Shown piece after piece: positions 4,504 through 46,415 of a stretch of 64,000 nucleotides of DNA (position 1 is the stretch's first letter; each line of letters begins with the position of its first letter). The translations under genes and the position numbers were made by a program. The notes under the pieces were generated by a model. The model ran no database searches. It worked only from the letters and a program-made list of their open reading frames with translations, and was not told where the DNA came from. Origin of the DNA: Capitulum mitella. Lineage: Eukaryota > Arthropoda > Thecostraca > Pollicipedomorpha > Pollicipedidae. Location of the stretch: NCBI GenBank assembly GCA_030062745.1, contig CP099839.1, forward strand, positions 26,835,324-26,899,323, read 5' to 3'.

Positions 4504-7500
4504 AGTGGACAAAATTCAATAAGGAGAACACAAATGCCTGGTGGGGTCTCAACCAATGCGTCTCGTTCGCAGAATTGCCCCCGCAGTCATTTTTCCTTAA
4601 AATAGGCCCTGGCTCAGTATGTGCTGAATGTCTCACTTGTGGCTTGCTTCCATGTAGGGATGGATAGTCGCTAGTACCCACATGGGGATATTTGGTCCTT
4701 AGCTCCTGCAGTGTGGGTACTGCAAGTGATGTATGGTATGCTGATTGTTATCATGTTTCACATGAGTGAACTTTTGCTACCTATCAGGCATGGGGTGTGA
4801 CCATCTGCTCTGCTGTCATTGTTCATCCCACATTCATCAAAATGCTGCTGGCAATGTGTTCAGTAGCCATCCCACTGTCACATCATTGGTGCTGCCATAT
4901 CTTGGCACTGCTACTTGCCACATTGTGCCCTGCAGTGGACTGCTCTTTGAGAGGGCCTACTGCCACTACCGGCTGAACCAGAATAAGGAGGCTTTGGCGA
5001 TCATAGACCAGGCTGAAGACTGCACACTCCCAATGAAGGAGCTTAGGGCCCAACTGTACTACAAACTAGAAAGGTGAGTCATGAAGTTCATGTATTGCCA
5101 AAACTGGTCACAATTGTGTGCACGTGAGGATCACAAAACAATTATTTTTAATATTCCAAAGCATTGCCAGTGGATTTTGCCCTAAATTTCCTCTGTTTGC
5201 ATTAGCATAACACTTTTTACTTTGTATCATGACATTTTCAGCAGTTTCTGTTTTTGTGAATCATATTTCTTTGTGTCTGATGTAGATTTCAGGAGGCACA
5301 CCAGGCGTACCGTGATGTCATAAAAAATACCGATGACGATTTCAACGATGAGCGAGAGGCCAACCTGGCAGCAGTGCTGGCTCAGCTGAGGATGTCTGAA
5401 CAGGTTAGCCTGTCTTCTATTTTATTATAAGACTCTTATAAGATTACACTCTGTTATTATAAGATTACACTGTTTGCGGTAGATAAATCACGGGGAAAAT
5501 TTTGCAGACATGTGATCTTTTCTCCTTGTGGCCAGTATGTCTCCGACTTTTATCTTGCAGGAAGACAGTGGCATGTTTGCTCCAGCATCAAGAAAGCAAT
5601 AAAAATGCCTCCCCGCGCCTCACCCCAACTGTCGCTTCAACAATGGAGGACTCGTCTACCTGATTTTTCATTGTCAGATTGGCAGGGATGATGTAAGCCG
5701 CACTGTCGAGGGGGTGGCCTTGTCGCTAACCGTGTTGGTTCGGAGAAAACAGCCAGTGTCATGCCCTGTGTGCAGCGCTGAAGGGACGTTGATTTTGTCT
5801 GCTATGCTCTCGGGGAGATGGTGCCAGTGTGACGCGGTGTGCCTCTGAGAGATGGCGCCAGTGTGACTCCGTAGGTCTCGGGAGACGGCGCCAGTGTGAC
5901 GCCGTATGTCTCTGGGACGGTGTCGATGTGACGCGGTATGTCCTGGGGAGAAGGCGCCAGTGTGACGCCGTATGTCTCTGGGACGGTGTCGATGTGACGC
6001 CGTATGTCCCGGGGAGAAGGCGCCAGTGTGACGCCGTATGTCCCGGGAGACGGCGCCAGTGTGACGCCGTATGTCTCGGGGACGCTGTCGATGTGACGCC
6101 GTATGTCCTGGGGAGAAGGCGCCAGTGTGACGTTGCGTCTCGCACCATAGGGAGACGATGACTCTGCCGAGCTCTCTGACGGCACCTACGAGCTGGTCTA
6201 CAACGGCGCCTGCCGCCACCTGGCGGCCGGCCGTTACCAGAAGGCCGACAAACTGCTGGTCCGGGCCGCCGAAATGTGCCGCCAGACCCTGAAGGAGGAC
6301 GGCGCCGACGACGACGAGATTCACCAGGAGACGGCCATCATACAGTGCGTACTGCTCATTCGGTTACAGTGTGTGCCACACTGTTGCAGGCAGCCGTCAT
6401 ACTGTGCGTACCGTTCACTCGTTTATGACGATGTACCACAGATACTCCACCACAAATGTGAATGCAGATAGCGATCATGCAATGTATGCTGCTCACTCTT
6501 TAAGCGATCATATTGATCGGCTGCAGATGAATATGGTGCAGTGCATGCCGGTCGAGTCTGATGCCTCGCACGTTTGGCTGCATCGCCTTTCGTGTAATCA
6601 CGTATTGGAACAAACGGAGAAGTGGTCCATAGATGTTGCTGGAGATAGCGACCACGTCCTTTCCACCGTCCCTGCTTTTATTTATGAATAGTTTCCACAC
6701 TGTGCATTTATCATGACGTGCGAAGCGTTTTTGTGGCTTGGTGTTCAGCATTACAGTGTGTTGTAGTTACTGTACAAAAACGAATTCATCTGCTGCCTTT
6801 ATGATCCCATGTTCCATCCGCCCTGTTTATTCATCCATGTTACGTCGCTAGCATGCCACTGCGTGAGCCGTCGCCGAACCGAAAGTCGTGTCGGCTGTGC
6901 CGTGTGGTGACGATTGTGGCGCTGCCGCTGCCTGGCGCAGGGTGCAGCGCGCCTTCTGCCTGCAGCAGCTGGGTCGCACGGCCGAGGCGTCCGAGATCTA
7001 CCACGAGACGCTGAAGCACCGGCCCAGCGACATCTCCGTGGTGGCCGTGGCCTCCAACAACATCGTCGTCATCAACGGCGACCAGAACGTGTTCGACTCG
7101 AAGAAGCGGATGCGCGCCGTGGCGGCGGAGGGCGCCGACGCCAAGCTGGCCGCCCACCAGTGCCGCCGCATGGCGATCAACCAGTGTCTGTTCAGCCTGC
7201 TCACCCACCAGGTGAACGGCCAGCAGCTGGGTCTCAGGGTCCCGGTACGCTCCGGCTGAAACTGGGGAATGCATTGCGGGTCGCGTGTGAGTGATGTAAT
7301 TCCGCCATGCTCTTTAATAAGGCTCCATGAGGAATCGCGCCCTGTGTTACTTAAGTGTGTGCTGGAATGGAATGGAAATGGAAGATTTCACGCGGTGTAG
7401 GGGCCGGGGGGTTCACGGCTCGTCGCTGCTTCATGCGACTCTCAGGTTTATGTCGCTGCGCTCGTGTCCTGGATAGGACGCCTGTGCTCACGGCTCTATG

Positions 7501-10500
7501 TCCACAGGCCCGCGGCGTCGCGCGTCTGCGGCGCCGTTTGTCGTGTGCCGGACGGCAGTCCGCCACGTCGCTTGCCGTATGACGGACAGAAGTCTTCTGC
7601 GTCGTCTGCCGTGCGTGGGGAGGGAGGCTGCTGCGGCGTCTGCTGAGTGTTGACGGGAGTCTGTTCCGGCGTCTGCCATGTGGACGGGAGTCCGCAACGT
7701 GTGCCATGTGTCGGGCAGAAGTCTGAGTCGGCGGCTGCCGCGTACCGGCCAGGAATCTGCGTCGTCTGCATTGTGCTGGGCAGGAGACTGCGTCGGCCGC
7801 CGCTGTGTGCCGGGCGGGATTTGGCGGTGTCTGCTGTGTGCCGGGTGGCGTCTGCGGTGTCTGCCGTGTGCCGGGTGGGAGTTTGCGGTGTCTGCCATGT
7901 GCCGAGTCGGAGTCCGCAGCGGCGTCCGCTCTCTGTCGGCAGGGGGAGCAACTGCAGCGGCAGCTGGCCGAGCTGACGGAGCGGTTCCCGGAGGACGCGG
8001 TGACGGCGGCGCTGATCCGGGCCTCGCACGTGGGCCGCCGCAGCCCCGAGGAGGCCACTCGCCTGCTGCAGCAGTTGCCGGCTGGCTCCGAGCGGGAGCA
8101 GCTGCTGCTCAAGCTGGCCCAGGTCCAGCTGCACGTCAACAAGGTGGGTCGCCTTCTTCCGTCGTCGCCATTTGCTCGACATTGTCGTTTCTATTGCTAG
8201 TTCTGGAGTCCTTACGAACACTGTTACGACAGATGACTTGCGTTGTCTGTTTGTCACGGTCCGTTACCTGTAATGGCTGTTATGGCTTGAAATTCGAAAA
8301 TTCTTCAGAAGTCTGTGATGTAGAAGAACATCTGTACTGTGTCGAAAAGCCTGCGCTGGTGCGTTGTGGCTCGGGTTCTCTTCCGATGCTGCGTCGCAGG
8401 CCCGGTATTACTGTATTAACGTAACGTAACGTAGTGTAACGTAACGCCGCTCCGTTATGCTCCGCTCGCTGTCATGCTGCCGCGCCGCCGGCCCCTGCTG
8501 ACGCCCTGCCGCCCCTCAGGGCCAGCTGGCGGAAGCCAGCCGGCTGCTGGGCGAGCTGGGCGCCGTCAGCTGGCAGCCGGGCGTCGTGTCGGCGCGCGTG
8601 GCGCTCTGCGTGCGCGCCGGCGACCAGCAGCGGGCGGCCGCCCTGCTCGCCGAGGCTGTCAAGTGGCACAACAAGACCAAGGTGAGCCCGCCCTGGTCAC
8701 GGCCGCCTTAGACACGCTCTCCTATGGTAATCGTGGACAGACGAGGCTCCTGGGACGGGGGTGACACGTTAGGAGCAGGGAGGACTGGCGCTGTTCTCGG
8801 CGGTACGCGTCGGTGGTGAGTATCGGCACAGCCTATTTGAGCAGTGCGACTGTGAGTAGTGATGTTGGAGAGAGTGGTGTTGGGAAGTGGTATGGTTGCG
8901 TTTGCGTTTTTCAGCTATGTGGTGTTTTGGCGAAGGGCGTCCGCAGGACTTATTTCTTCTGATGTGGCCGCCGTGGAAAATCCCAGAGTAGCGTCTCTTT
9001 GCGTCTGGCCTGTCGATCGTAATGGTCATGAATCCATCCCCGTAGGGGATTACGCTTGTCGCCGCTCACTAACATAAGTTCGCCGAGTGTATCACGAGCC
9101 GTTGCTGCCCCGTGTTCGGTCGTTTGTGCTCTGTGCTCTGTGCTCTGTGCTCTGACCGCCGCCGTCTCTCGCATGCCGTGTCCGGTCGTTTGTACTCTGA
9201 GCGCCTGTGCTCTGACGGCCTCCGTCTGCCGCAGTCGGAGGCGGGAGACGTCAGTCAGCTGTTGCGGCAGGCGGCCGACTTCAGTCTGCGCTGCGGCGAC
9301 CCGCGCACGGCCGCCGCCAGTCTGGAGGAGCTGCGCAAGCTGCAGCCGGGCGACGTGCGCACCGTGGCCCAACTGGTCACCGCCTACAGTCAGGTGTGCT
9401 GTCTGTTCTGAGGCCCAGCTGGTCACCGCCTACAGTCAGGGAAGCTGTCTGTGCTGACGTCCGGCCGGTCACCACCTACAGTCAGACGACCTGATGCAGG
9501 CCTTGACGGTACTAAGGTGCATCCGGTCACCGCCTACAGTCAGGGAAGCTGTCTGTGCTGACGTCCGGCTGGTCACCACCTACAGTCAGACGACCTGATG
9601 CAGGCCTTGACTGTACTAAGGTGCATCCGGTCACCGCCTACAGTCAGGGGAGCTGTCTGTGCTGACGTCCGGCCGGTCACCGCCTACAGTCAGATGACCT
9701 GATGCAGGCCTTGACTGTACTAAGGTCCAGCCGGTCGCCACCTACAGCCAGGTGGCCTGCTGTTGACTCCCGGGCGCCGAGTGCCTGCCAGTGTCTCCGC
9801 CCTGTGCTGGCTGTCTGGATTTTCGTTGGACGCGCTCTAACCTGGCGACCTGCGCTGGCCCGGTGACCTAACCCTTCTGGCAACCCACCGTAGCCCTGCG
9901 ACCTACCCTGACGCGCCGCCCGTCTGCCGCCAGTTTGACCCGGCCCGGGCGGAGCGGGTGTCGGCCGAGCTGCCGCCGCCGCAGCCGGGCGCCACGCTGG
10001 ACGTGGACGCGCTCGAGCTAACCTCGTGGTCGGCCGGCGGCCGGCCGCGGCGCCGCGACGGCCTGCCCAGTCCCGGCTCGCCTAGGTCAGTGGTCGCCGC
10101 CGTACGGACTGTGCCGTCCAGACTGGAGGCTGCCAGACTCATCCGAGTCACTGCTATGCTGAGTTAATAGTTTGTAGTGGAGACCGGCTGGTAGTTACGC
10201 CTTTCGGAACAATTTTTCTGAGGGTTGTACCGCGTCCTGTGGCGGTACTTTCCAGACCTGAGCTTGCAGCCCGATGAAATGCAGGTTGACCTCGTTTTCT
10301 GTCCGATTTTTAGTAGACCGGGATAAGTGTTTCGTCACCTCGGCACCGTTCGTCTTTGTCGGGACACACCCTTTCCGAGATGACGCAATGGCGCACCCAG
10401 ATCACTGGAGAGTCCGACACAAAACGGGAATAACTTGCATTCCGTCGGAGCTCAGGCACATGTCGGCTACTGACGTTAAAGCCACAGTGGTTTTCACGCG

Positions 10501-12328
10501 ATTAAATTAATTTAGATTTAATTATGCCGGGACTGCCCTATCACTTCTGGTTACAAGTGGCAATTGGGTTGGTACGGAGTGATCATCGTATGCTCATGCG
10601 TCATCGTTCTGGTTCTGTGTCCGAGAGCCGGCCAATGCCGGCCGTTGGAGTGGTTGTGTCGCACTTCAGAAGCTGGTCGGTGCTCTCTGCCGTCCCCGGC
10701 GTGTGTTGTCGCTCCTCTGACGACCTACTGCGCCGCCAGCCGCCATCGGCGACGCAGTCTTTACGTTACCGTGTCTCAGCCGAGCGACACGTGTCAGCCG
10801 ATTCTGACGTCATCCCGCGCCGGCAGCTCGCCGGACGCCGCCGGCGACGCCCTCATCCAGCAGAAGCAGAAGAAGCGCAGGAAGAAGAAGCCGCGCCTGC
10901 CCAAGGACTACAACCCCAAGGTGAAGCCGGACCCGGAGCGCTGGCTGCCGCGGCGTGAGCGGTCTACCTTCAAACAGAAGAAGCGCCGCCGCAACGAGGT
11001 CATGAAGGGCACGCAAGGAGGACCATCGGCCCAGAGCGACCTCTAGTGAGTAGCCATATCGGGCTTGGCACGTGCCCACGTCCGCATGACGATGTGAGGG
11101 TTGTCTCAGCGGGGGAGGGCAATTTGCGTATCGGAGTAGTATTTCTTATTTGGCATCGACCCAGGTGAAAGCCTCGGTTTCATGTCTCGAATAGTCAAGC
11201 ATTGGCGTCCCAAGCATGGATACGTATGTCTGATGCAACTGGCATTGGCTCCAAGCCTAGCGTATATCATGACCGTGATCGGTAGTTCAGTTGGTAGTGC
11301 TCCGGTCTCCCCGTCCTGGCAAGACCAGTTTGAGTTGCCCCGGCGCTCGATATTTGGCCCAGCTTTTTCGGGTCAGCCGGCAATGGGCCAACACAGTGTT
11401 AGACTGCTCATCACACGGTCGTGCCGCGCCCTTGCCGGCGCATTAAACGGTCGCCACGATATCAGTTGTTGCCTGGAATTGCTCGATCTGGAGAAGGGGG
11501 TCGGGTTCTGCAGAAAGCTTTGCTTAGCGCTGGCTCCGATCCCCAACATCATTTCAGCAGCCATTTGGGTCAGAATTATTTAAAAAGAAAATACATGGCT
11601 GAGCACCCAGCGACGACGGTGCTTTGTGACTAATGCCTGTTCGGCTTTAGGTTTTGCCCACGTTGGTTGGACTGACGTCCGTATGTTCTGGCCACCTGGT
11701 AACCGTGACCGTGTGCCGGTATGTGTCCGTTTGTCTCTGCTTCTTGGCGGGACACCGTCTGTGTGACCGTGTGCATGTGTCTCGATCCGCCCGAATCGGT
11801 CACGGACGTCCTGGTGTCCTTGGGTCTGGGACTTTTCTCCACCTGGCACTGTGCCCAGCGCCGTGTTGGCTATTTACGGTCGATACGGATTTCGTTTATC
11901 TCCGTCGGCCTCGTTGTCGTGACAGCTCTGTGTAATCACCTGTGTACCCGTTTACCCCCCTGCCGCGTGATGTTCGTGTGTCCGTGTCTGCGCCGCTGGC
12001 CGTCTGTCCGTGCGTGTGGCCTGCTGGCCGTCTGTCCGTGTGTCCGTGCCCGCCGCGCTGACCATGTGTCCGTGTGTCCGTGTTTGCGCTACTGACTGTC
12101 CATGTGTCTTCATTGCCGACCGTCTGTTCGTGTTTCCGTCTGCACGCTACTGATCGTCTGTCCGCGTGTATGCGCTGCTGACTGTGTGGTCGTGTGTCCG
12201 CCAGCGACATCACCAAGACGGCGCCGCAGCAGAAGGCGGCCGTGCTGCCGGACCAGACGGCCGGGCCGCGCCAGATGTCGCGCAACGCCCAGAAAAAGAA
12301 GAAGCAGAGCAAGAAGAGCAAGTGGTGA
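206..12328 (+). CDS. SRP72: Signal recognition particle subunit SRP72 (11 exons, 5' end outside window)
   Basis: SRP72 is the largest SRP protein. It forms a heterodimer with SRP68 on 7SL RNA and is needed for co-translational targeting to the ER. Exons, all joining in phase: 206-323, 4936-5073, 5286-5403, 6151-6344, 6941-7211, 7943-8143, 8520-8681, 9235-9393, 9934-10085, 10827-11045, 12205-12328; about 618 codons. The order matches the vertebrate protein: N-terminal TPR helices, a middle segment with [13 protein letters not shown] '[12 protein letters not shown]', DVDALEL, then the lysine-rich RNA-binding segment with [17 protein letters not shown] and RRERS, KGTQGG, and a final lysine-rich tail ending KKSKW. 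Human SRP72 is about 671 aa, so roughly 40 N-terminal residues are missing here, presumably upstream of base 1. There is no internal stop or frameshift, so the gene looks functional. Coding exons are strongly GC3-rich from 6.1 kb onward and less so in the first three exons. Confidence 0.96.
324..1560. other. Intron sequence, AT-balanced, no gene seen
   Basis: This is the first part of the large SRP72 intron. It has a C-rich stretch near 520-560 and no open frame longer than about 100 codons with recognisable content. Bases 700-1560 may be the 5' flank of the transposon relic that follows. Confidence 0.4.
1613..3930 (+). pseudogene. Decayed transposase-like gene relic inside the SRP72 intron
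   Basis: Broken plus-strand frames follow one another as one ancestral protein: 1613-1804, 1801-1920, 1877-2131, 2226-2429, 2491-2688, 2538-2762, 2763-2917, 2918-3352, 3428-3640, 3648-3872. Readable pieces include [44 protein letters not shown], the piece starting [18 protein letters not shown], and near the end [20 protein letters not shown] with ALTLIQ-like and [16 protein letters not shown] recall this D-T-T-SNTG / CRHH / DFAER combination from multicopy unannotated invertebrate proteins that look like DNA transposases. The D in FDTT may be the first catalytic residue of an RNase H-like fold (inference). Many frameshifts and stops mark it as dead. No terminal repeats were found. Confidence 0.55.
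4369..4501. repeat. (TA)n microsatellite, two blocks
   Basis: A long AT dinucleotide array is split by a short unique insert (CTTCCTTAGGAAAGCATC) around 4420-4438, in an SRP72 intron. The Tyr-Ile open frames through it are artefacts. Confidence 0.97.
4936..5073 (+). CDS. SRP72: SRP72 exon
   Basis: The acceptor is CCCTGCAG and the donor AAG|GTGAGT. It reads [20 protein letters not shown]..., the conserved SRP72 TPR segment equivalent to the vertebrate FEKAYCEYRLNR stretch. It ends with two bases of an Arg codon. Confidence 0.95.
5286..5403 (+). CDS. SRP72: SRP72 exon
   Basis: The acceptor is GATGTAG and the donor CAG|GTTAGC. It reads [14 protein letters not shown] then [19 protein letters not shown], matching the family pattern YRDLV-N-QDDYDEER-TNL-AV. 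It ends in phase 0. Confidence 0.95.
5829..6150. repeat. Minisatellite abutting an SRP72 splice acceptor
   Basis: About nine copies of a roughly 33-bp unit, with variants of 'GGCGCCAGTGTGACGCCGT' plus 'ATGTCTCGGGGAGA'. It runs straight into the acceptor at 6149-6150. The exon's first bases GGAGACG match the GGGAGACGG part of the unit. All frames are open because the unit lacks stops, which explains the long repeat ORFs on both strands. Confidence 0.93.
6151..6344 (+). CDS. SRP72: SRP72 exon
   Basis: The acceptor is ACCATAG, directly after a minisatellite; the donor is CA|GTGCGT. It reads [20 protein letters not shown] then [20 protein letters not shown], a TPR with the family's G-T-EL-YN-AC motif. 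The acidic loop [12 protein letters not shown] precedes AIIQ. It enters in phase 0 and ends with two bases of Gln. Confidence 0.94.
6345..6940. other. SRP72 intron, no gene seen
   Basis: Unique-looking sequence with short duplicated phrases near the exon (CATACTGTGCGTAC repeats of the donor CATACAGTGCGTAC around 6338-6411). Nothing else is recognisable. Confidence 0.5.
6941..7211 (+). CDS. SRP72: SRP72 exon
   Basis: The acceptor is TGGCGCAG and the donor CCAG|GTGAAC. It reads [20 protein letters not shown] ... [20 protein letters not shown], very close to vertebrate SRP72 ([17 protein letters not shown]). It ends in phase 0 at SLLTHQ. Confidence 0.96.
7440..7942. repeat. Degenerate minisatellite ending at an SRP72 acceptor
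   Basis: Imperfect repeats of a roughly 30-bp unit of the form GTCTGCCGTGTGCCGGGTGGG, AGTCTGCGGC. Best-kept copies lie at 7790-7910. The array continues to the pyrimidine tract and AG at 7941-7942, so the splice acceptor sits at the array edge. Confidence 0.85.
7943..8143 (+). CDS. SRP72: SRP72 exon
   Basis: The acceptor TCGGCAG follows a degenerate minisatellite; the donor is AAG|GTGGGT. It has 67 codons, phase 0 at both ends: [19 protein letters not shown] then [17 protein letters not shown], with the repeated Leu/Ala spacing of TPR helices. Confidence 0.93.
8520..8681 (+). CDS. SRP72: SRP72 exon
   Basis: The acceptor is GCCCCTCAG and the donor AAG|GTGAGC. It has 54 codons, phase 0: [20 protein letters not shown] then [14 protein letters not shown], equivalent to the family's A-I-W-Q-N TPR helix. 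Confidence 0.94.
8682..9234. other. SRP72 intron with short tandem CTCTGTG/CTCTGACGG repeats at its 3' end
   Basis: Bases 8682-9090 look unique. From about 9115 to 9234 there are tandem GTGCTCTGT units, then two copies of a CTCTGACxGCCxCCGTCTxxC phrase; the second forms the branch/polypyrimidine region of the acceptor. Confidence 0.6.
9235..9393 (+). CDS. SRP72: SRP72 exon
   Basis: The acceptor is CTGCCGCAG and the donor TCAG|GTGTGC. It has 53 codons, phase 0: [18 protein letters not shown] then [13 protein letters not shown], matching the family's REAANFKLKYGR...H-LAQLISAYS. The last 21 bases of this exon are copied several times in the following intron. Confidence 0.95.
9394..9760. repeat. 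Minisatellite derived from the 3' end of an SRP72 exon
   Basis: The phrase GGTCACCGCCTACAGTCAG, identical to the last coding bases of exon 9235-9393, recurs at about 9420, 9525, 9629 and 9674, with variants at 9467, 9571 and 9728. The higher-order period is about 105 bp. Spacers share GAAGCTGTCTGTGCTGACG and GACCTGATGCAGGCCTTGAC. The donor GT after the CAG is altered in most copies; a copy near 9752 keeps CCAG|GT. Confidence 0.95.
9934..10085 (+). CDS. SRP72: SRP72 exon
   Basis: The acceptor is CTGCCGCCAG and the donor CCTAG|GTCAGT. It reads [19 protein letters not shown] then [12 protein letters not shown], matching the DVEALE segment that links the TPR part to the RNA-binding tail. It ends with two bases of Ser. 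Confidence 0.93.
10086..10826. other. SRP72 intron, nothing recognisable
   Basis: A 741-bp intron with open frames but no family resemblance. Confidence 0.5.
10827..11045 (+). CDS. SRP72: SRP72 exon, RNA-binding segment
   Basis: The acceptor is GCCGGCAG and the donor CTCTA|GTGAGT. It contains [19 protein letters not shown] then [13 protein letters not shown] and MKGTQGG, the hallmark of the SRP72 7SL RNA-binding domain. This exon identifies the gene most securely. The acceptor is the one that restores phase with the preceding exon (AG + C). Confidence 0.96.
11275..11600 (+). mobile_element. tRNA-derived SINE copy in the last SRP72 intron
   Basis: The head is GATCGGTAGTTCAGTTGGTAG, a tRNA-like A box. 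The B-box position reads AGTTTGAGTTG (degenerate) about 45 bp downstream. A second copy at 49912 keeps a clean GGTTCGAGTC there. The body shares CGCTCGATATTTGGCCC, GGCGCATTAAACGGTCGCCAC and CAGCCATTTGG with the copies at 49.9 and 51.2 kb. It ends in an A-rich tail near 11590. Confidence 0.8.
11950..12200. repeat. Degenerate GTCCGTGTGTCCGTG / CTGACCGTCTGTCC minisatellite
   Basis: Short TGTCCG-type repeats of variable length occupy the 3' end of the last SRP72 intron up to its acceptor. Confidence 0.8.
12205..12328 (+). CDS. SRP72: SRP72 terminal exon
   Basis: The acceptor GTCCGCCAG ends a TGTCCG-rich tract. The split codon TA|C gives Tyr, then [33 protein letters not shown] and TGA at 12326-12328. 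The lysine-rich, Trp-ended tail is typical of SRP72. I see no clear AATAAA before the transposon that starts at 12610. Confidence 0.92.
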
Positions 12329-20294: not shown

Positions 20295-20507
20295 CTAGCC
20301 GGCCGACGGCTGGTTCCTCAGCGTCCGCATCACCTCGTCCAGGTGCGAGATGTACCGCTTGTACTCGCGGATGGTGATCCAGTTGCGGAGGTTGCGCTCC
20401 CGGCTGATGTCCAGCGCCCGGTCTCCGTCACCCATGAAGTCGGCGGTCACGGTGCCCTTGGGCCGTAGCTGCTTCTCCAGCATGGCGATGTGCAGCTCGC
20501 ACAGCAG
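20295..20507 (-). CDS. Cytokine-like gene, exon 4 (helix C end, helix D, stop)
   Basis: The acceptor is CTCTCCTCCACAG, phase 0. It reads LLCELHIAMLEKQLRPKG, TVTADFMGDGDRALDISRER, NLRNWITIREYKRYISHLDE, then TAG at 20297-20295. Helix D ends only eight residues before the C-terminus, as in the CNTF/LIF group. Confidence 0.7.
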   Translation of the reverse strand: MLCELHIAMLEKQLRPKGTVTADFMGDGDRALDISRERNLRNWITIREYKRYISHLDEVMRTLRNQPSAG

Positions 20508-23500
20508 CTGTGGAGGAGAGGCGGTGCGTCAGAGCGGCGCCGCCGAAACAGGTCGTGTCGGAATGGCACGGATGAGGTAACGGGCGTGAGTCAGCGGCCG
20601 GCCGACCGCTGCAGAGGGCCCGTCACCGGTTCCAGGTAAGCCCACGGCGCCGGCCCTGACGCCGAGGCCGGCCGGAGACGTCACCACATCAGAACATCGG
20701 CGAGGTAACCACCAGTCACAGTGATTCGCCGGTCGGGGAATACCCCGGGAGTCGGCCAAAACAGCGACGCCACCTTCCGACGACGTCAGGGCCCGCCTGG
20801 GCCGCGCTCAGCGTCCACTCCGTGGAGTTCGACCATGAGCTGCTCGGGTCGAGCCGGTGCGGGCCGCGCCCGCCACCCACCTGCATCAGGTCGGCCTGCA
20901 GCCGGCGGAAGGCGTCCAGGTTGAGGTCGCCGGACACGGCCGCGTCCAGCGTCATCCGCTCGAAGACGACGGCGATGCGCTGCAGGTCGGCGAAGTGGAT
21001 GGGCAGCGCCTCCTCCAGCGAGAGCGCGCCGCCGCCCTGCTGCCGGGCGATCGTGACGTGCACGAAGCCCAGCCAGCTGACGTTGTGGTGCCCCCAGTCG
21101 CGCATCATCGCCTCCTCGTCCACGTTGTACGTGGAGCGCACCTGCGAGCGGGAGGAGGACGGGTCACGGGCGGCCGGGCGCATTCGGAGCGGACGTTCCA
21201 ACGGGTCGCCGTGGCTGAACAGAGGCGCGAGGGCTGCGAGGGGCCGAACAGACCAACGACAACGCCGAGGAGCGCGATCGACCGGGACCAAACGCAGCAC
21301 GCGCCGCGCGAAAAAGCAGCCACGCGGCGGAGAGAAACTCCCCAAGCCAGCAGCGGTGACGTCATCCGGCAGCGCGCGCCACACGGAACTGGCGCGGAAC
21401 TGCCCGCTTCCCGGCCGGCCGGCCGGCGCGAGCGTACCGCGGCGTCGAGTCACGGCTGCGCGCGGACCGGGTCCAGCGCGGCGGCGTGAGAGGCCCCCGC
21501 CAGGGAAGTCCCATCGCTGCAGCGTCGGCCGGCGGCCGGCCGGCCCAGACGACGCCGGCGGCGCCCGCCTCCCTGCCGAGCGCGCCCCAGACAGGCGGCC
21601 TACTAATAGTCACTCTTCTCCAGAAGCCGCACCAGACGGCCCCGGCTTATTCCTACTCGGAAGGGGTGAGCCAGACGCGAAGCTATCCGCGGCGGTAGTG
21701 ACAGCACTCGGTTCGGAAAACAGCGCGATGCAATATGGGCGGCGCGGGGCGAGTCTCGGTAGCTGCGAGCAGACGTGGGACCGGCAGGACAGGCCAGATC
21801 ACCGCCTTCCGAGGAGGCCAGCTGGGCCGTGACCCCACGGCGCCGCCCGCAGAACGCCGCCGGGCGGGCGGCTGCGCCTGTTTAGTCATGCAAACAGCTC
21901 CGACGAACTGGGAGTCGTTCCGCGCCGGTCCCCGCCGCCACCGGCCAGCCTCCAGCCGCCAACACCGGTGGCAACGAACGCCCTTACCCGGGGATTAGCC
22001 GATAAAAATGGCTCAGAACGTTTCCCGGTATTTGGTGGAATGTTGTGGGCGGCGCCAGGAGCCGCCGTCGTATCTGAGGCACGCTGTGCTTATGGCCGCG
22101 GGACAGGGGATGTTGCGGCCGTGCAAAGTGTCGTTAACGTTTATATTGTCGGCCATAAATATCGCGCCGCGTACGTCGCTGGTTGTCCGGCTGGGGTTTT
22201 TATCGCCGATGGCCAGCTGCCCATTATCGTTTGTCGTTATGAGTAGGTGTCGATTTATGGTGATGTAATGGTCACGTGCCATTGAACTAGAACCGGTTTG
22301 GAGTTCCCAATCCGACTCCGGAGTTCAAGGCGAGTGTTTCGCGTTCCGCGCGGCAGCTATCAATTAGCTACCTCCAGAAGCTCTCAGTGAAGTATTTTCC
22401 GTGCTCAGCGCCTTCAAGTGCAAACGTCCCGGCGAAATTTCGCAACGTTGACGTCCGTCTACTCGACGGTATTGGGGTTTCCCAGTGGGTGGGAATACGA
22501 CGACATGTCAGACAGACTCATTCCGCGAACGCTTTAGATGTCGTAGTTTCCTGACGCACAGTATATCGCAAGAAACCTGGCGCCCCGGCCAAGGCAGCGG
22601 TGACCACTGCCTCCTGCCACAGCGGGCGGCCGCACGGGTGCCCGGCGCCCCGCCAGAGGCAGCGTCGGCGCATCGCGGCCGAGGCGGGTGGCGCCGCTCC
22701 GTCGCCGCGCCCTGCGCTCGCCGGAAGCGACCGGCTGCGTCAGAGTCACCTCTGACCCAACGCCCCGGCACGCGCGTCATTCCTGCCGCCGGCGGCCGCC
22801 CCCGCCGCCCCTGTTATCGGGCGCCGACTGCCAGGCGTCGACTGCGGCGGCCCCGGTCCGGGCGGACCGGCCGGGCCGGAGGGCAGGCCGCGGCGCGCCT
22901 GCAGCGGTGCCGCGCCCCCCCCCCCCCGCACTCGCTGGAGGATCGGACGCGAGGGAAGCGCCGGGACCGTCGTCTACGTCCAGGGAGCGTCAGGCGTGGC
23001 GCCGGAGGCGACTGGCCGTCGTTGTCGCCAGCGTCGGCGGCCGGCCGGGCGGCGGGTCCGCGGGGAGCTCGGCGGCCGTCTCCCGGGGCCGGCGCGACCG
23101 GCCGCTTCCGGCGCGGCGACACCTCGGAAGCCGGCGTCGGCCGGCCGCGGCCGCTTTGTTGATCAGTCCAGTCTGACGTAACACGCGGCGGCATGAGATC
23201 AGCGGCCAGGCGCGCGGCGCCGCCCCCACGTGACGCCGCGCGCGTGCGTGGCCGCCGGCGGCCGCCCGTGATTCAGGTGCGCTCCCGGATCCCGACCGTC
23301 AACAATAGGCGCGGCGCCGCGGCGAACGCGCCGGCGCGCCACGCATGGCCGTGACGTCACGGCCGGGCCGGCCGGCGTCCGCCCAAACAGACGGCGTGAA
23401 TCAACGTGGCGACATCGTGACGTCACGGCGCTGGCGGCCGGCCGGCCGGCCGGCGGCGCTCTCCGCCCGCGCCGCGCGAAGGGCAGGCAGCAGGGCCGGC

Positions 23501-26185
23501 GCGGTCGCTGCTGGTGTATCTCGTGACTGCGTGCAGTGACGGCATGTGTCATGCCCCCGCGACCGCTGACCGGCGTCCAGCGGGCAAAGTCCGGCACCAG
23601 CCTCGATGTGCCGGCTGGGTATCGTTCAATGTCCGCGGTCGCTTGCCGGCCGCACTCTGCTCATGGCCCCGTGTTGGTTGCCATGTGCCTCTGCGTTTGA
23701 CGAAAATGACATCTGGTGTGTGTGGAACTGGAATTAGACGTTGTCTGGCAGCTCCAGAAAGTCTGGAGGTTCCGGTGAACTCTGCTCTACGATTAAACAA
23801 CAACCGTTAAATACCAGAGACAGTCTTGGACGTAGGAAAAAGAGGCCGAGGAAGAAATAGAAAAAGAGGGCGGAGAATATTGATACAATTGAAGGCCAGA
23901 GCGGGAGAAAAGATAAACAGAATGAAAGGTGAACAGCATCTTGGCCCTCTTCAGCTGGCCCTTTCCTACGGCTCTGAAAACTACGCCAGACTGCACGGGA
24001 TTTGCAGTAGACCGCTTACTGTGTCGTCCCCCCGGACCAGTTACAGACGTTTCAAAGAAATCGTTACGCAACGACGGACCTGAGCCAGTGTCAGATCAAA
24101 CCGGCCGTGATGGTACAGAGTTCCGGCAAATGAAAATCCCGCACTTCTTGGAAACACCCGACAGAAAAACAACCTTCATAACGGACAATGCAGAGCAAAA
24201 ACTACAGCACACCTTAAACACCTCGTTTACCACAGTATCAACCATTATGACTCACAACGATAATGCGCTCCGCCCGGTCCCAGCCACCCAAAGCCATTGG
24301 TTTCACAACAGGGCCTTGGCGGCAGCGGGACTCGGTATTTCCGGCGCGTCCGCGCGTGCCAGCCTGGTCCGCCCCCGTCGGCGAAGGCATTTCCGACCGG
24401 CCCGATAGCTGAACGAAGCCGAGCGGAGACGAGAGCACGAAGTCGTGAAAATCGCCAGTGGGATGGAATGATAGCGGTCCATTACCGTTAGTCAGAAGGT
24501 GTGGAGAGTCATCGGTGTTCTGTCGTGTTCCGTCATGTCAGTTTCGTCAATTTCGGCCGCTGTTCATCGCGTCAGTCTGGCGCACCGCCGCAGCCAAAGG
24601 GGCCCGGGGGCCCGGCCCCCTTAGGATTTTTTTCACATTTTTTGTGAAATTTCGCATTTTTGTGAAAACCAGTACAGATCGTCTTTCCAGCAAGCGGTTT
24701 TCGTATGATTTCAGTTCATATTGAGCTCTGTCCCCCGCCCTCCTTAAAAAAAATCCTGGCTGCACCTCTGGTCTAGCGACGTGTAGTGGAAGAAGCTGCT
24801 GCCTAGCGCTGACGTTCAGGTCACCACGAGGCCTTTGCACGTCATGCAGACGATGGCTCCGCAACGCAGGTATTACAAAGCGGCGACCGACGTTACACAG
24901 CACGCAGTGGCGGTCAGATGTCGCAAAACAATGCGGTCGGTTACTTACGAATACGTCCATGATGTCGTCGACTTTCGGCCGCACCACCCGGTTCAGGTGG
25001 ATGATCCTGTCGAGGATCTCGGCGTCCGAGGCGCCCGAGATGCTGGTGCCGCCGCCCTTCATCAACGCTTCGTCAATGGCGCACGGGTTATTCCACTGAG
25101 ACTGCCGCGGCGTGGGTGCCGCCAGCGCCGGTGGGCACACCAGCCACCAGACCACCAGACCCACCACCGCTGACTGGTCTGCAATGGGGAGAGGGAGGTT
25201 CGTCAGTCGACACACCAGTCGCCAGGCCGGCAGACCTGCCGCCGCCGCCGACTGGTTTGTAATAGGGACAGGGAGGTTCGTGAGTCGACAGACCAGCCGC
25301 CAGACCAGACCAGCAGACCCACCACTGCCGACTGTTCTGTAATGGGGAGAGGGAGGTTCGTCAGTCGACAGACCAGCCGTCAGACCAGCAGACCCACCAC
25401 CGCCGACCGGTCTGTTAGGGGCGTTTGTCGGTAGACAGACCAACCACCAGACCCACAGACCTGCCGACGCGCTAGTAAGGACTAGACAGGACGGTTCGTC
25501 AGTCAACATTGTGCGCAGCTAAAATGAGGCTGACGTTGAATGCGGCTAAATATACAACTCATCCCTGGAATGCTTCGAATGTTGTCGCTACAGAAACTAG
25601 TTTGTTTGTCTCTCTAGTGACGAAAGTTTCGTGGGAAATCACAATCACAGTGGGAGCAAACAGGTCTTGTTATATGAAAATAAATTAGTAAATATGGTCC
25701 TCGAAGCACTTTTTGAAGATGTGGCGGCGTACCATTCACTGTAAACACGGTTAACTGTGAAATATGTGGACAGATGCGCGTCTAACGGCGTCGTATGTCG
25801 CATATCGCACGACATAAAACATAGCTATTTTGGGCACATAATGACGTGTCTAAGGTCAACTTATCACGACATGTTGAACAAACACACCCTCACCACGAAC
25901 ACATGGCCTCTCAGCAACATCAGGGCCCGGAGTGACCAGAGGGATCATCTGACTCTCCATTAGCACAAAATTTTTCGTCGGCTGACTACCGTACATATGT
26001 GGCACGATGTTCCTCACTTTTCAAGATGCTTTCCAGTCTCTCGTCCTTTTATGAAAATCCCGATTACGTGCTTCTCGTAACGACCACGAACTGTACAACA
26101 TCTCAGTCTGCTGGCGAATGACAGTGAGGCTGTACTGACGACCTCTCGGCAGGCGGAACTTACAGCCCTGCCCCGAGGAGAACAT
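20295..26185 (-). CDS. Secreted four-helix cytokine, IL-6/CNTF/cardiotrophin class (candidate), 4 exons
   Basis: Exons in transcript order: 26185-26164, 25178-24949, 21141-20881, 20507-20295. They join to 241 codons plus TAG with no stop or frameshift. Residues 1-27 are a signal peptide (MFSSGQGYQSA then VVGLVVWWLVCPPALA, cleavage likely ALA|APTP). Predicted helices: A about 58-86 (EILDRIIHLNRVVRPKVDDI), B about 124-153 (LSLEEALPIHFADLQRIAVV), C about 158-186 (LDAFRRLQADLMQLLCELH), D about 206-235 (RNLRNWITIREYKRYISHL). There is a long A-B crossover and a long C-D loop. Cys are at 22 (in the signal), 40 and 174; an N-glycosylation site NVS is at 104-106. Intron phases 1, 0, 0, with the first inside the signal peptide, are those I know from IL-6 and LIF. 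Length and helix order fit IL-6, CNTF, CLCF1 and cardiotrophin; the C/D region, with a GDG-containing loop, resembles CNTF most. Such ligands act through gp130-like receptors and JAK/STAT; in flies Unpaired/Domeless fill this role. Identity is by fold pattern, not strong sequence similarity. A family outside the cytokines remains possible. Confidence 0.62.
20881..21141 (-). CDS. Cytokine-like gene, exon 3 (A-B loop, helix B, start of helix C)
   Basis: The acceptor is CGCTCGCAG and the donor ATGCAG|GTGGGT. It has 87 codons, phase 0 at both ends. It contains VRSTYNVDEEAMMRDWGHHN, VSWLGFVHVTIARQQ, and helix B starting after EEALPIHF. Confidence 0.7.
21142..24948. other. Intron 2 of the cytokine-like gene; CpG-rich
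   Basis: A 3.8-kb intron, very GC- and CpG-rich from 21.1 to 23.7 kb with runs of GGCCGGCC (23441-23456). Long frames on both strands here reflect base composition. A hAT MITE sits at 24583-24770. Confidence 0.7.
24583..24770. mobile_element. hAT-type MITE with 8-bp target duplication
   Basis: The ends are CACCGCCGCAGCCAAAGGGG and ...AATCCTGGCTGCACCTCTG, an imperfect inverted pair. The flanks are GTCTGGCG (24575-24582) and GTCTAGCG (24771-24778), an 8-bp duplication with one mismatch. It shares CAGATCGTCTTTCCAGCA-GCGGTTTTC with the copy at 37893. Confidence 0.88.
24949..25178 (-). CDS. Cytokine-like gene, exon 2 (signal peptide end, helix A)
   Basis: The acceptor is CTCTCCCCATTGCAG with a strong pyrimidine tract. 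It enters with AC, completing Tyr 8; the donor is TTC|GTAAGT in phase 0. It encodes the hydrophobic core VVGLVVWWLVCPPALA, a short N-terminal segment with WNNPC, a Gly/Ser linker GGGTSISGAS, and helix A. A second possible acceptor (CTCAG at 25096-25100) would remove the signal peptide, so it is less likely. Confidence 0.65.
25172..25450. repeat. Minisatellite built from the exon 2 acceptor and signal-peptide sequence
   Basis: About four copies of a 75-80 bp unit start at about 25172, 25251, 25330 and 25405. Read on the minus strand each contains the pyrimidine tract CCCTCTCCCCATT-CAG, ACCAGTC and the Trp/Leu-rich signal-peptide segment. At least the copy near 25337 retains a CAG acceptor. The minus frame is open from 25509 through all copies into exon 2. 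Confidence 0.9.
26164..26185 (-). CDS. Cytokine-like gene, exon 1 coding part
   Basis: ATG followed by FSSGQG and one base, then CT|GTAAGT, a perfect donor, in phase 1. Twenty-two coding bases is close to the very short first coding exon of IL-6 and LIF. The base at -3 is A. In-frame ATGs 15 and 21 bp or more upstream (MLHCR..., GMLHC...) are alternatives. I prefer this start because it leaves the most compact signal peptide. Confidence 0.6.
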
Positions 26186-29100: not shown

Positions 29101-29860
29101 TGAACACTGGATGAGACTACGTTTTTAACCATCCCTGTCTCAAGTGTTGCGTCACCCACCTGCGATCAAGGCAACGGCGATTGTGATCTGTCTCGTGCAA
29201 TGACAGGAGATGAGAGTTCCGGGGGTGCGCGGCGTTAGGCGCTCGGGCGGCTGCTTGCCCATGGCAACAACAAGACGGAAAGGTTTCGCCGGGGCCAGAA
29301 GAAGAAGGCGAAGCGCTGCGTACCGAACAGACGGTTCGCAGCGCGTCCCAGCCGCCGAGACGGCCGGCCGGTTTCGTCACCAGACCTGCGCGGCAACGCC
29401 GTGCAGGATCGCAGCAGTGACGACAGCGCCGTCCGCCTCACACGGGGAGACCGGCACCGGAGCGCGGCGCCGGCGACTACTCACGTGTCGATGGGTGGCG
29501 GCCGCCGCGGACGGGCGACGTCGGCGGACTCGTCTGCCGCCTCCGTCCGAATCTCCGCGCGGTGCTCTCGGCACGCGGGGCGCAGCTCTCGGCACTCTGT
29601 CCACAGGGAACGCCGCGGCCCGCGAGCGCCGGCGACTCGCACACGGCGCACCTGCAGCGCCCGGCGTACTCCCGGCAAACGGCGCTCCCCGACGCGTCGG
29701 CCAGCATTCTGAGGCGCGGCGAGATCGGCACTGACAACACGCCGCCGCGGCCACGCTGTCCGAGCTGCTAGGCAAATCGGCTCCTCACCAACACTGATGG
29801 CGCGCGCTGCCGGCTCCGGCATCATATACAAGAATCTTACCTGGCAGGCGCGCTGGCCCG
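26200..29860. other. GC- and CpG-rich region upstream of the cytokine-like gene
   Basis: Very GC-rich blocks at 26280-26780, 27240-27560, 27940-28300, 28560-28900 and 29200-29800 are separated by ordinary sequence. Many overlapping frames run on both strands; only the weak exon candidate at 28508-28753 is listed separately. Confidence 0.5.
28508..28753 (-). CDS. Possible coding exon of unknown gene (weak)
   Basis: A minus-strand frame opens after a GCGGCAG acceptor at 28754-28755 and reads LCRLTEVKSGALPARHLQLR, then TGLVF, then GRTCHHVAVSHEGTVNVAAA and AWVFGSEEVEF before a stop. The alternation of short hydrophobic strands with VSHEGTV and VFGSEEVEF faintly recalls the beta-trefoil of FGFs, but there is no decisive motif. 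No partner exon was found. Confidence 0.2.
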   Translation of the reverse strand: MCRLTEVKSGALPARHLQLRPRQDGPPVRHADTGLVFRRRRGRTCHHVAVSHEGTVNVAAAGEAGGHAWVFGSEEVEFSPS

Positions 29861-32369: not shown

Positions 32370-32890
32370 TTTAGGACCAAGGTTCGTGGTAAGTCAAAGC
32401 TTGTGTGGGAAGAGGTTTGTAGCCAAAGGTAATACGGCTCGTTTGCAAAAGGCTCGTATGACGAAAGGTTCGTATCGGAAAAGTTCCGTATCAGAAAGGG
32501 TTCATAAGGGAAAGGTTCGCTCTACAAAAGGTTCGTATGGAAACGGTTTGCACAAAAAAGGTTCGTAAGGGAAAAGGCTCGTGACCAAAGGCTCGTAAAC
32601 TTAAGGTTTATATCGAAAAAGGTTGATATCGGAAAAGGCGAGGGGCAAGAACAGTAACCTAGCCTGACCTAACCTATCCTAAAGTAGCCTTTTTGTTGGA
32701 CCGAGCCAAGTCCGATCGCACTCTTCATCGGCCTGCGGCCTCTCATATCCTACACCGCGCCTTCGGCGCAAACCCAGAATGAACCTTTTCCGATACGAAC
32801 CTTATCCCATACGAATCTTTTCCGATACGAACCTTATGTTTATGACCCTTGGGCAGCGAACGTTTTCCCAAAGGGACCCCTGACTTACGA
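32370..32890. mobile_element. Foldback-like inverted array of AAAAGGTTCGTAT units
   Basis: The left arm (about 32370-32640) has roughly fifteen tandem copies of a 15-20 bp unit such as AAAAGGTTCGTATGGAA. The right arm (about 32775-32880) carries the same unit inverted (CCTTTTCCGATACGAACCTT repeated). The middle is a 130-bp core with CCTGACCTAACCTATCC. Terminal inverted repeats built of tandem short units are the hallmark of Foldback-type elements (known for the class; assignment inferred). Confidence 0.65.
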
Positions 32891-42697: not shown

Positions 42698-43914
42698 GGT
42701 ATCAACATAGGTGGGCATCGTTACTAAAAAATGTAACTTCGTTACTCGTTACTACGTTACTCAAAAAAGCCAGTCCGTTACTCGTTACTCCGTTACTCTG
42801 CCTTAAAAAGTAACGGAAGTTACCGTTACTCCGTTATTCCGTTACTTTTTTAAATGCAGGGAAAACCAAGCGAACGCGGGTTTTAAGTCTTTTATGCTGC
42901 TTTCTGGTTGTAAAACGCATTCCATATACAAAGGGAAGAAAAAAAAGCGCTTACCCCAAACACTCCTCTAGCTGCCCACTGCCCTCACCAGCCGTTGTAG
43001 AGTCGGCGGCGCCGGGACAACAGCCGCGGCGGGTATTCTACCAGTGTTAACCACAATGTTCAAACCAACGAATTCCTGTTCATTGCCCGCGGCGCCGACG
43101 GAGCGGGAACAACCGGCGCTGGAGCGGACGCATGCAAAATGCGACAAACAGCGGACATCTATCGACTGGGTTTGATCAACAATGCCTCTCGAAGTATCGC
43201 CCTGAACATAATGGTTTCCGTTCAGAGCTCGTTTCGGTCTCGCGAACTTCTTGTTTTGTTTTGAAATTATGTGTGTGTATTAGTTTGTGTACGTGCGCGT
43301 GCGTGGAGGTAAGATTCCTGATACCCCTGACGTTTTTTTAATACCAAACGACGAAGGACTCAAAAAAACATGACTGATATGGATTTGATTATTGTGAAAT
43401 AAAAGACTAAAAAAAGGTGCTTTAGTACCTCTTCAGCACCCTTGAAAAGACAAATTAGCTATAAAAGCATGGTCATAAGTAAGATGCAACGGACATGCAA
43501 GACGGATGCAACATGTTAGCCGTTCACAAGTGGAACATTTTGGAACGATGACGTGACCTGACCTGACCCCTGTGAAAGGCCAAAATTGATATCAATGAAC
43601 TCGCTATTGTCTTACGGTTCAGTATATGTTGCTTAAGTTCAGCTTTTCAGGGACAAGGTATTGTGTCTATTTACCTAATTCCAAGGACGTGTTTTGACCT
43701 TTCATGGTGTCTGGTGGCCTCAAAATTGACCTGAGGTCAAAACTCTTGAATGTTTTCGTCTCGGTTTCACAAAACCTTTCCGCCGGTGTTTTTCTTTTTC
43801 CGTGCGATATATGGGAGCCGACATCCTGGGAGGTGCGGAAATCCGCGTTCCCCCTCCGGCCGAGCAAAGGGCCCGGCCCTGAGCCCGGCCGGAGACGGGT
43901 TAAAAACACTTCAT

Positions 43915-45678: not shown

Positions 45679-46415
45679 TTTAGTGTCAGGTAGTTAAAAT
45701 TTCAGGCCAGTCAAGAATCAATCACCACTCCATCGCCCCATGGACACCACAGATGCAAGGCCATGGCGGCAGTAATCATGTGCTCAACAGCCTTGAGTGA
45801 TCTTGGCGGGGAACCGTGTGGCGGTGGTAAGCAATCCGTGACTGACTTGAGACAACATTGAAAACTGCCGTCAGCTGGCTGTTCCATTATAAATGACAAT
45901 AACTTTGATATCTTTTGGCCTGAAAAATGACGACTGGTTAATTTATAATTTTAAGTCATATCAAACTTAGGCATAATTCAATACTTTTGTCCCAAAAGAG
46001 ACCAAAGTCAGCTGGCCTTTATACTGAACCATTGCCGCCAGCTTGCCGTCAACGTTTATCAGCTGACGAATATTGTCAACAAGTCTACTCCGCGATTGTC
46101 AGCTGAGTGCGCACCCAGCCGCGCTTGTATCGCCGCACGCTATTGGGTGTTGGCTATTCAAGTAGCCAATGGCGTGTGCCGATGCAAATAAAGCCGGGCG
46201 GTGTCTGTAAGGAGTTTAAAAAGTAACGGAGTAACGGAGTAACGGAGTAACGGACCAAAAAGTAACGGAGTAACGGACCACAAAAGTAACTTCCGTTACT
46301 CAGTCCGTTACAGTAAAATAAAAGTAACGGGTCCGTTACTCCGTTACTCAAAAAAGTAACTTCGTTAGTAACGGAGTAACGGAGTAACGGACCAGTGCCC
46401 ACCTATGGGTATCAA

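What the first reader, a model, noticed from the sequence alone, without database searches (positions are those of the whole stretch)
20295..26185. Intact IL-6/CNTF-class four-helix cytokine candidate in an invertebrate-like genome
Four minus-strand exons join in phase into 241 residues: signal peptide, four amphipathic helices with long A-B and C-D connections, one N-glycosylation site, and a helix D next to the C-terminus. The C helix, GDG loop and D helix region align by eye with CNTF, and 'EALPIHFADLQ' resembles the cardiotrophin A-B/B region. Classical IL-6-family ligands are described mainly from vertebrates; in arthropods the JAK/STAT ligand role is known for the very divergent Unpaired proteins. 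A recognisable CNTF/cardiotrophin-like gene here would inform the origin of the family.
Basis: partly seen in the sequence, partly recalled or inferred. Interest (0 to 1): 0.92.

Follow-up and report, generated by a model that had tools for sequence, protein, structure and literature searches.

The report
Barnacle IL-6/CNTF-like four-helix cytokine gene
This barnacle gene encodes what looks like a secreted signalling protein built like the vertebrate interleukin-6/CNTF messengers, whose counterparts are unknown in many arthropods, so it offers a testable candidate for a missing immune and growth signal.

The parts
29485..29731 (-). alternative 5' exon used in P0001; the only ATG within this stretch (29707) is in frame with the cytokine; ends phase 1, donor C|GTGAGT
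   Evidence: tblastn of P0001 on window, splice site, ATG scan
24949..25178 (-). exon 2: signal-peptide core, mature N-terminus with Cys, helix A; ends phase 0
   Evidence: joined to exon 3 in P0001
25120..25176 (-). hydrophobic core and A-L-A cleavage site of the signal peptide (QSAVVGLVVWWLVCPPALA|AP)
   Evidence: hydropathy peak in P0001, P0005, P0006; alignment
25081..25083 (-). invariant N-terminal cysteine (NPC), proposed to pair with the helix C cysteine
20881..21141 (-). exon 3: end of helix A, A-B connection with two short helices and an N-x-S sequon, helix B, first half of helix C; ends phase 0
20295..20507 (-). exon 4: second half of helix C, C-D connection, helix D, stop codon
20499..20501 (-). 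invariant cysteine in helix C (LLCEL)
20313..20408 (-). helix D (model residues 280-311)
   Evidence: DSSP of model

Best explanation
The gene encodes a secreted long-chain class I (up-up-down-down) four-helix cytokine of barnacles, nearest in fold to the gp130 (IL-6/CNTF/IL-11) group. Shown by computation: gene structure, conservation, predicted fold. Inferred steps: a hydrophobic signal segment takes the protein into the secretory pathway and signal peptidase cuts at A-L-A|AP. The mature protein of about 214 residues folds into helices A-D, with one disulfide tying the N-terminus to helix C. It then acts as an extracellular ligand that clusters a class I cytokine receptor of the Domeless/gp130 type (or CRLF3) and switches on JAK/STAT. 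This is the role that Unpaired plays in flies and for which several other arthropod groups have no identified helical ligand.
Confidence: 0.8

Rival explanations
1. A class I helical cytokine or hormone, but of the growth hormone/prolactin/leptin or G-CSF branch rather than the gp130/IL-6 branch, signalling through a homodimeric receptor.
Against: CNTF and IL-11 lead in both models, by 1.8 to 3.1 Z units over G-CSF; the N-terminal-to-helix-C cysteine pair resembles LIF.
Confidence: 0.12
2. A four-helix protein that has converged on the cytokine topology and does something else, for example an extracellular structural or binding protein.
For: No sequence similarity to cytokines; helical bundles give middling fold scores easily (tool note).
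Confidence: 0.07
3. The translated product is leaderless (starting near AMSAP as the Pollicipes and Amphibalanus models do) and acts like CNTF, released on damage, or inside the cell.
For: P0002, P0003 and P0004 begin at MSAP; CNTF itself lacks a signal peptide (recalled).
Against: The segment before AP/SP is strongly hydrophobic in all three sequences that extend upstream, though its letters differ, as expected of a translated signal peptide. The window species has no Met at that place.
Confidence: 0.1

Closest known systems
CNTF / CLCF1 / IL-11 / IL-6 (gp130-family cytokines)
   Different: 9-18% identity in the structural alignments of these four and no significant sequence or profile hit; no F-x-x-K; invariant Trp (RNLRNW) lies 5-7 residues after the extrapolated site 3 aromatic; arthropod.
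LIF / oncostatin M
   Different: One possible bond instead of the two that tether LIF's N-terminus; no F-x-x-K; lower fold scores than CNTF and IL-11.
Drosophila Unpaired (Upd1-3)
   Same: Proposed role: secreted helical ligand of an arthropod gp130-like receptor; [quoted passage not shown]
   Different: Homology was not tested; Upd2 homologues were annotated only in Drosophila species (PMC5385356 passage); none of the 8 hits is named Upd.
Amphioxus growth-hormone-like cytokine
   Same: A type I helical cytokine outside vertebrates (PMC9010856 passages).
   Different: Chordate, assigned to growth hormone; the barnacle protein matches gp130-family members best.

Membership tests
Long-chain class I helical cytokines (superfamily) | Four long helices in up-up-down-down order with long A-B and C-D connections | tested here: met
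   Two AlphaFold2 models; alignment to CNTF over 170 of 174 residues at 2.5 A. Topology is read from this match; coordinates were not inspected
Long-chain class I helical cytokines (superfamily) | Enters the secretory pathway | tested here: inconclusive
   Hydrophobic segment in 3 of 3 sequences that reach it but start codon unresolved; no signal-peptide predictor available
Long-chain class I helical cytokines (superfamily) | Binds a class I cytokine receptor and signals through JAK/STAT | not testable with these tools
   Needs binding and STAT assays
gp130 (IL-6/CNTF) family | Closest in fold to gp130-family ligands | tested here: met
gp130 (IL-6/CNTF) family | Detectable sequence or profile similarity | tested here: inconclusive
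   None significant; but LIF and CNTF do not find each other in the PDB by sequence
LIFR-binding subgroup (CNTF, CLCF1, LIF, OSM) | F-x-x-K motif at the start of helix D | tested here: not met
   No F-x-x-K in any of the 8 sequences, 7 of which cover the start of helix D; motif described in PMC10022904
IL-6/IL-11/IL-27p28 subgroup | Tryptophan at the start of helix D for site 3 | tested here: inconclusive
   RNLRNW in 7 of the 7 sequences that cover it, but its Trp is 5-7 residues after the place extrapolated, without gaps, from the alignment ends
LIF/OSM subgroup | Disulfide tying the N-terminal extension to helix C | tested here: inconclusive
   Cysteines at both places, the only two in the mature part of 5 of 5 full-length sequences; distance not measured, no coordinates
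Unpaired family | Sequence or structural homology to Upd1-3 | not tested
   No Upd structure or sequence was compared

The most novel reading that the evidence does not exclude
This is the unrecognised helical ligand of Domeless-type JAK/STAT signalling in a crustacean lineage. It is a true homologue of the vertebrate IL-6/CNTF group, showing that a gp130-type ligand with its receptor existed before protostomes and deuterostomes split and was missed elsewhere because its sequence evolves too fast.
Probability: 0.45. Interest if true: 0.9.

Novelty: new member of a known kind. Interest (0 to 1): 0.78.

Why it matters
The activators of JAK/STAT in arthropods are described as largely unknown (PMC9195186 abstract, which reports the enzyme peroxiredoxin 4 as one ligand in shrimp). 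Varroa keeps Domeless, JAK and STAT while no Unpaired was found in Varroa, ticks, honey bee or scale insects (PMC12027997 passages). IL-6 was detected only in vertebrates in one survey (PMC13203501 abstract start). A barnacle gene with a confident IL-6/CNTF fold gives a concrete ligand to test against the barnacle receptor. It also gives a structural template for finding hidden ligands in other arthropods, which bears on when this cytokine group arose.

Tried and rejected
Pfam scans of the 241-aa protein and of 6 family members gave no credible family (only hit Ku_C, E 0.06, 14.3 bits against a cut-off of 23). PDB sequence and profile searches gave only hits read as chance: eIF1 E 0.04, CRM1 E about 1, ribosomal S19 E 1.6. 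hhalign of the barnacle profile against single LIF and CNTF sequences was not significant, probability 0.1-0.3%, although the short aligned stretches put helix D on D (LIF) and helix A on A (CNTF). Helical hydrophobic moments were not exceptional (of 2000 shuffles 85 reached the value for helix A, 397 B, 681 C, 523 D). CpG content did not mark a promoter, because the window is not CpG-depleted (observed/expected 1.02). Viral capture: two peptide patterns, 35 matched stretches in viral contigs, none a relative. Rfam: nothing in the window. Chance assembly of the exons was rejected on P0001. Vertebrate contamination was rejected because relatives are in two named barnacles and the gene is split by introns here. 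Similarity of the intron phases to vertebrate IL-6-type genes is recalled only; the one paper search for it gave nothing useful, and no weight is put on it. A family absent from the 50-row fold lists is not excluded by them; CLCF1 is absent from the second list.

Literature: the listed rows (25 of 33 papers; 1; 15 of 4,205; 12 of 43; 15 of 27; 12 of 120; 1; 12 of 145,110; 12 of 69) showed, by title and abstract start, no paper on a barnacle cytokine. The LOC numbers themselves were not searched, and the library holds open-licence papers only.

Full report
Observation. Read with the literal coordinates the frame breaks. Moving each internal boundary by one base gives exons 26185-26164, 25178-24949, 21141-20881 and 20507-20295, with GT/AG at each junction, phases 1, 0, 0, a 726-base frame and 241 residues. 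GC at third codon positions is 0.95 against 0.53 at the first two.

Transcript support. A search of about 5.8 billion proteins returned P0001, 316 residues from a 2,221-bp contig, 100% identical over exons 2, 3 and 4. In the window these exons span 4.9 kb, so the contig is spliced (inference: a transcript assembly). P0001's first 82 codons plus one base map to 29731-29485, ending C|GTGAGT, and join exon 2 at the predicted acceptor. Its first letter, M, is a valine codon in the genome. The only ATG of that stretch lies at 29707 and is in frame. It may be an alternative first exon (donor GTAAGT) or may not be real. The hydrophobic segment and the A-L-A|AP site lie in exon 2 either way.

Family. 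The first search gave 3 proteins (of 1,043 candidates), a profile search 6, and a wider profile search 8 (8,000 candidates scored in each). The named ones are Pollicipes pollicipes LOC119098438 and Amphibalanus amphitrite LOC122381661, both called uncharacterized, so the window is very probably a barnacle (inference). The other six, P0001 included, come from unnamed sources; P0006-P0008 are partial. In the mature part, identities to the window protein are 63, 62, 59 and 49%, and 79 of 237 columns are invariant among the five full-length sequences. P0006 ends a few residues after the exon 2 end with letters that look like a read-through donor, and P0007 begins a few residues before the exon 4 start. 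Both suggest the same intron places in other species (inference from the protein letters). The searches reach only relatives that share exact 5-residue words, so absence outside barnacles is weak evidence.

Features. The mature part has exactly two cysteines in 5 of 5 full-length sequences, in NPC before helix A and in LLCEL in helix C. An N-x-S sequon is present in 4 of 5. Three of the eight proteins reach upstream of the mature start. All three show a hydrophobic stretch there, with different letters but the same character.

Sequence silence. Pfam, PDB phmmer, PDB profile search and hhalign against LIF and CNTF are not significant. This does not count against the fold: LIF finds no CNTF or OSM in the PDB by phmmer at E up to 1, and CNTF finds no LIF at E up to 10.

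Mechanism. Shown by computation: gene, conservation, predicted fold. Inferred: secretion, one disulfide, and action as an extracellular ligand that brings class I receptor chains together to start JAK/STAT signalling. Domeless is the first candidate receptor, CRLF3 the second (its endogenous ligands are described as not identified, PMC8063046 abstract start). No barnacle receptor was looked for. F-x-x-K, the LIFR contact described in PMC10022904 (passages), is absent, so receptor contacts must differ in detail. If helix D is aligned without gaps, the vertebrate site 3 aromatic falls near P0001 residues 282-284, while the invariant Trp is at 289 (reckoned from the alignment ends; residue numbers of the vertebrate hot spots in part recalled).

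Relation to known. It meets the fold test of the class I long-chain superfamily and is nearest the gp130 group. Membership in the LIFR-binding subgroup fails on F-x-x-K. Relation to Unpaired was not tested. In print, IL-6 was detected only in vertebrates in one survey (PMC13203501, abstract start and passages). The arthropod activators are called largely unknown, with peroxiredoxin 4 proposed in shrimp (PMC9195186, abstract and passages). Upd is reported not found in Varroa, ticks, honey bee and scale insects (PMC12027997, passages). Type I helical cytokines are known in amphioxus (PMC9010856, passages). None of the listed paper rows showed this gene.

Verdict. The finding stands, with a corrected gene model and a more careful family label: a new arthropod family of IL-6/CNTF-like class I helical cytokines, receptor unknown.

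Noticed in passing
25146-25415: A 78-bp tandem array (3.5 copies) whose unit includes the start of exon 2 and its acceptor, so the signal-peptide coding region has partial upstream duplicates, some with acceptor-like ends.
   Followed up: partly
6867-11046: Exons of an SRP72 gene on the + strand (PF08492 at 10522-11046, E 1.2e-18; weak TPR at 6867-7259), convergent with the cytokine gene.
   Followed up: partly
29485-29731: The 5' exon of P0001 reads as an open frame from its only ATG into the cytokine, giving about 75 arginine-rich residues before the hydrophobic part; P0005 from another source also has a long in-frame extension there.
   Followed up: partly
32436-32835: Arrays of 16-bp units (GGTTCGTATGAAAA-like and its complement), function unknown.
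   Followed up: no
42719-42798 and 46222-46391: Short arrays built on AGTAACGG and its complement, about 3.4 kb apart; possibly ends of a mobile element.
   Followed up: no
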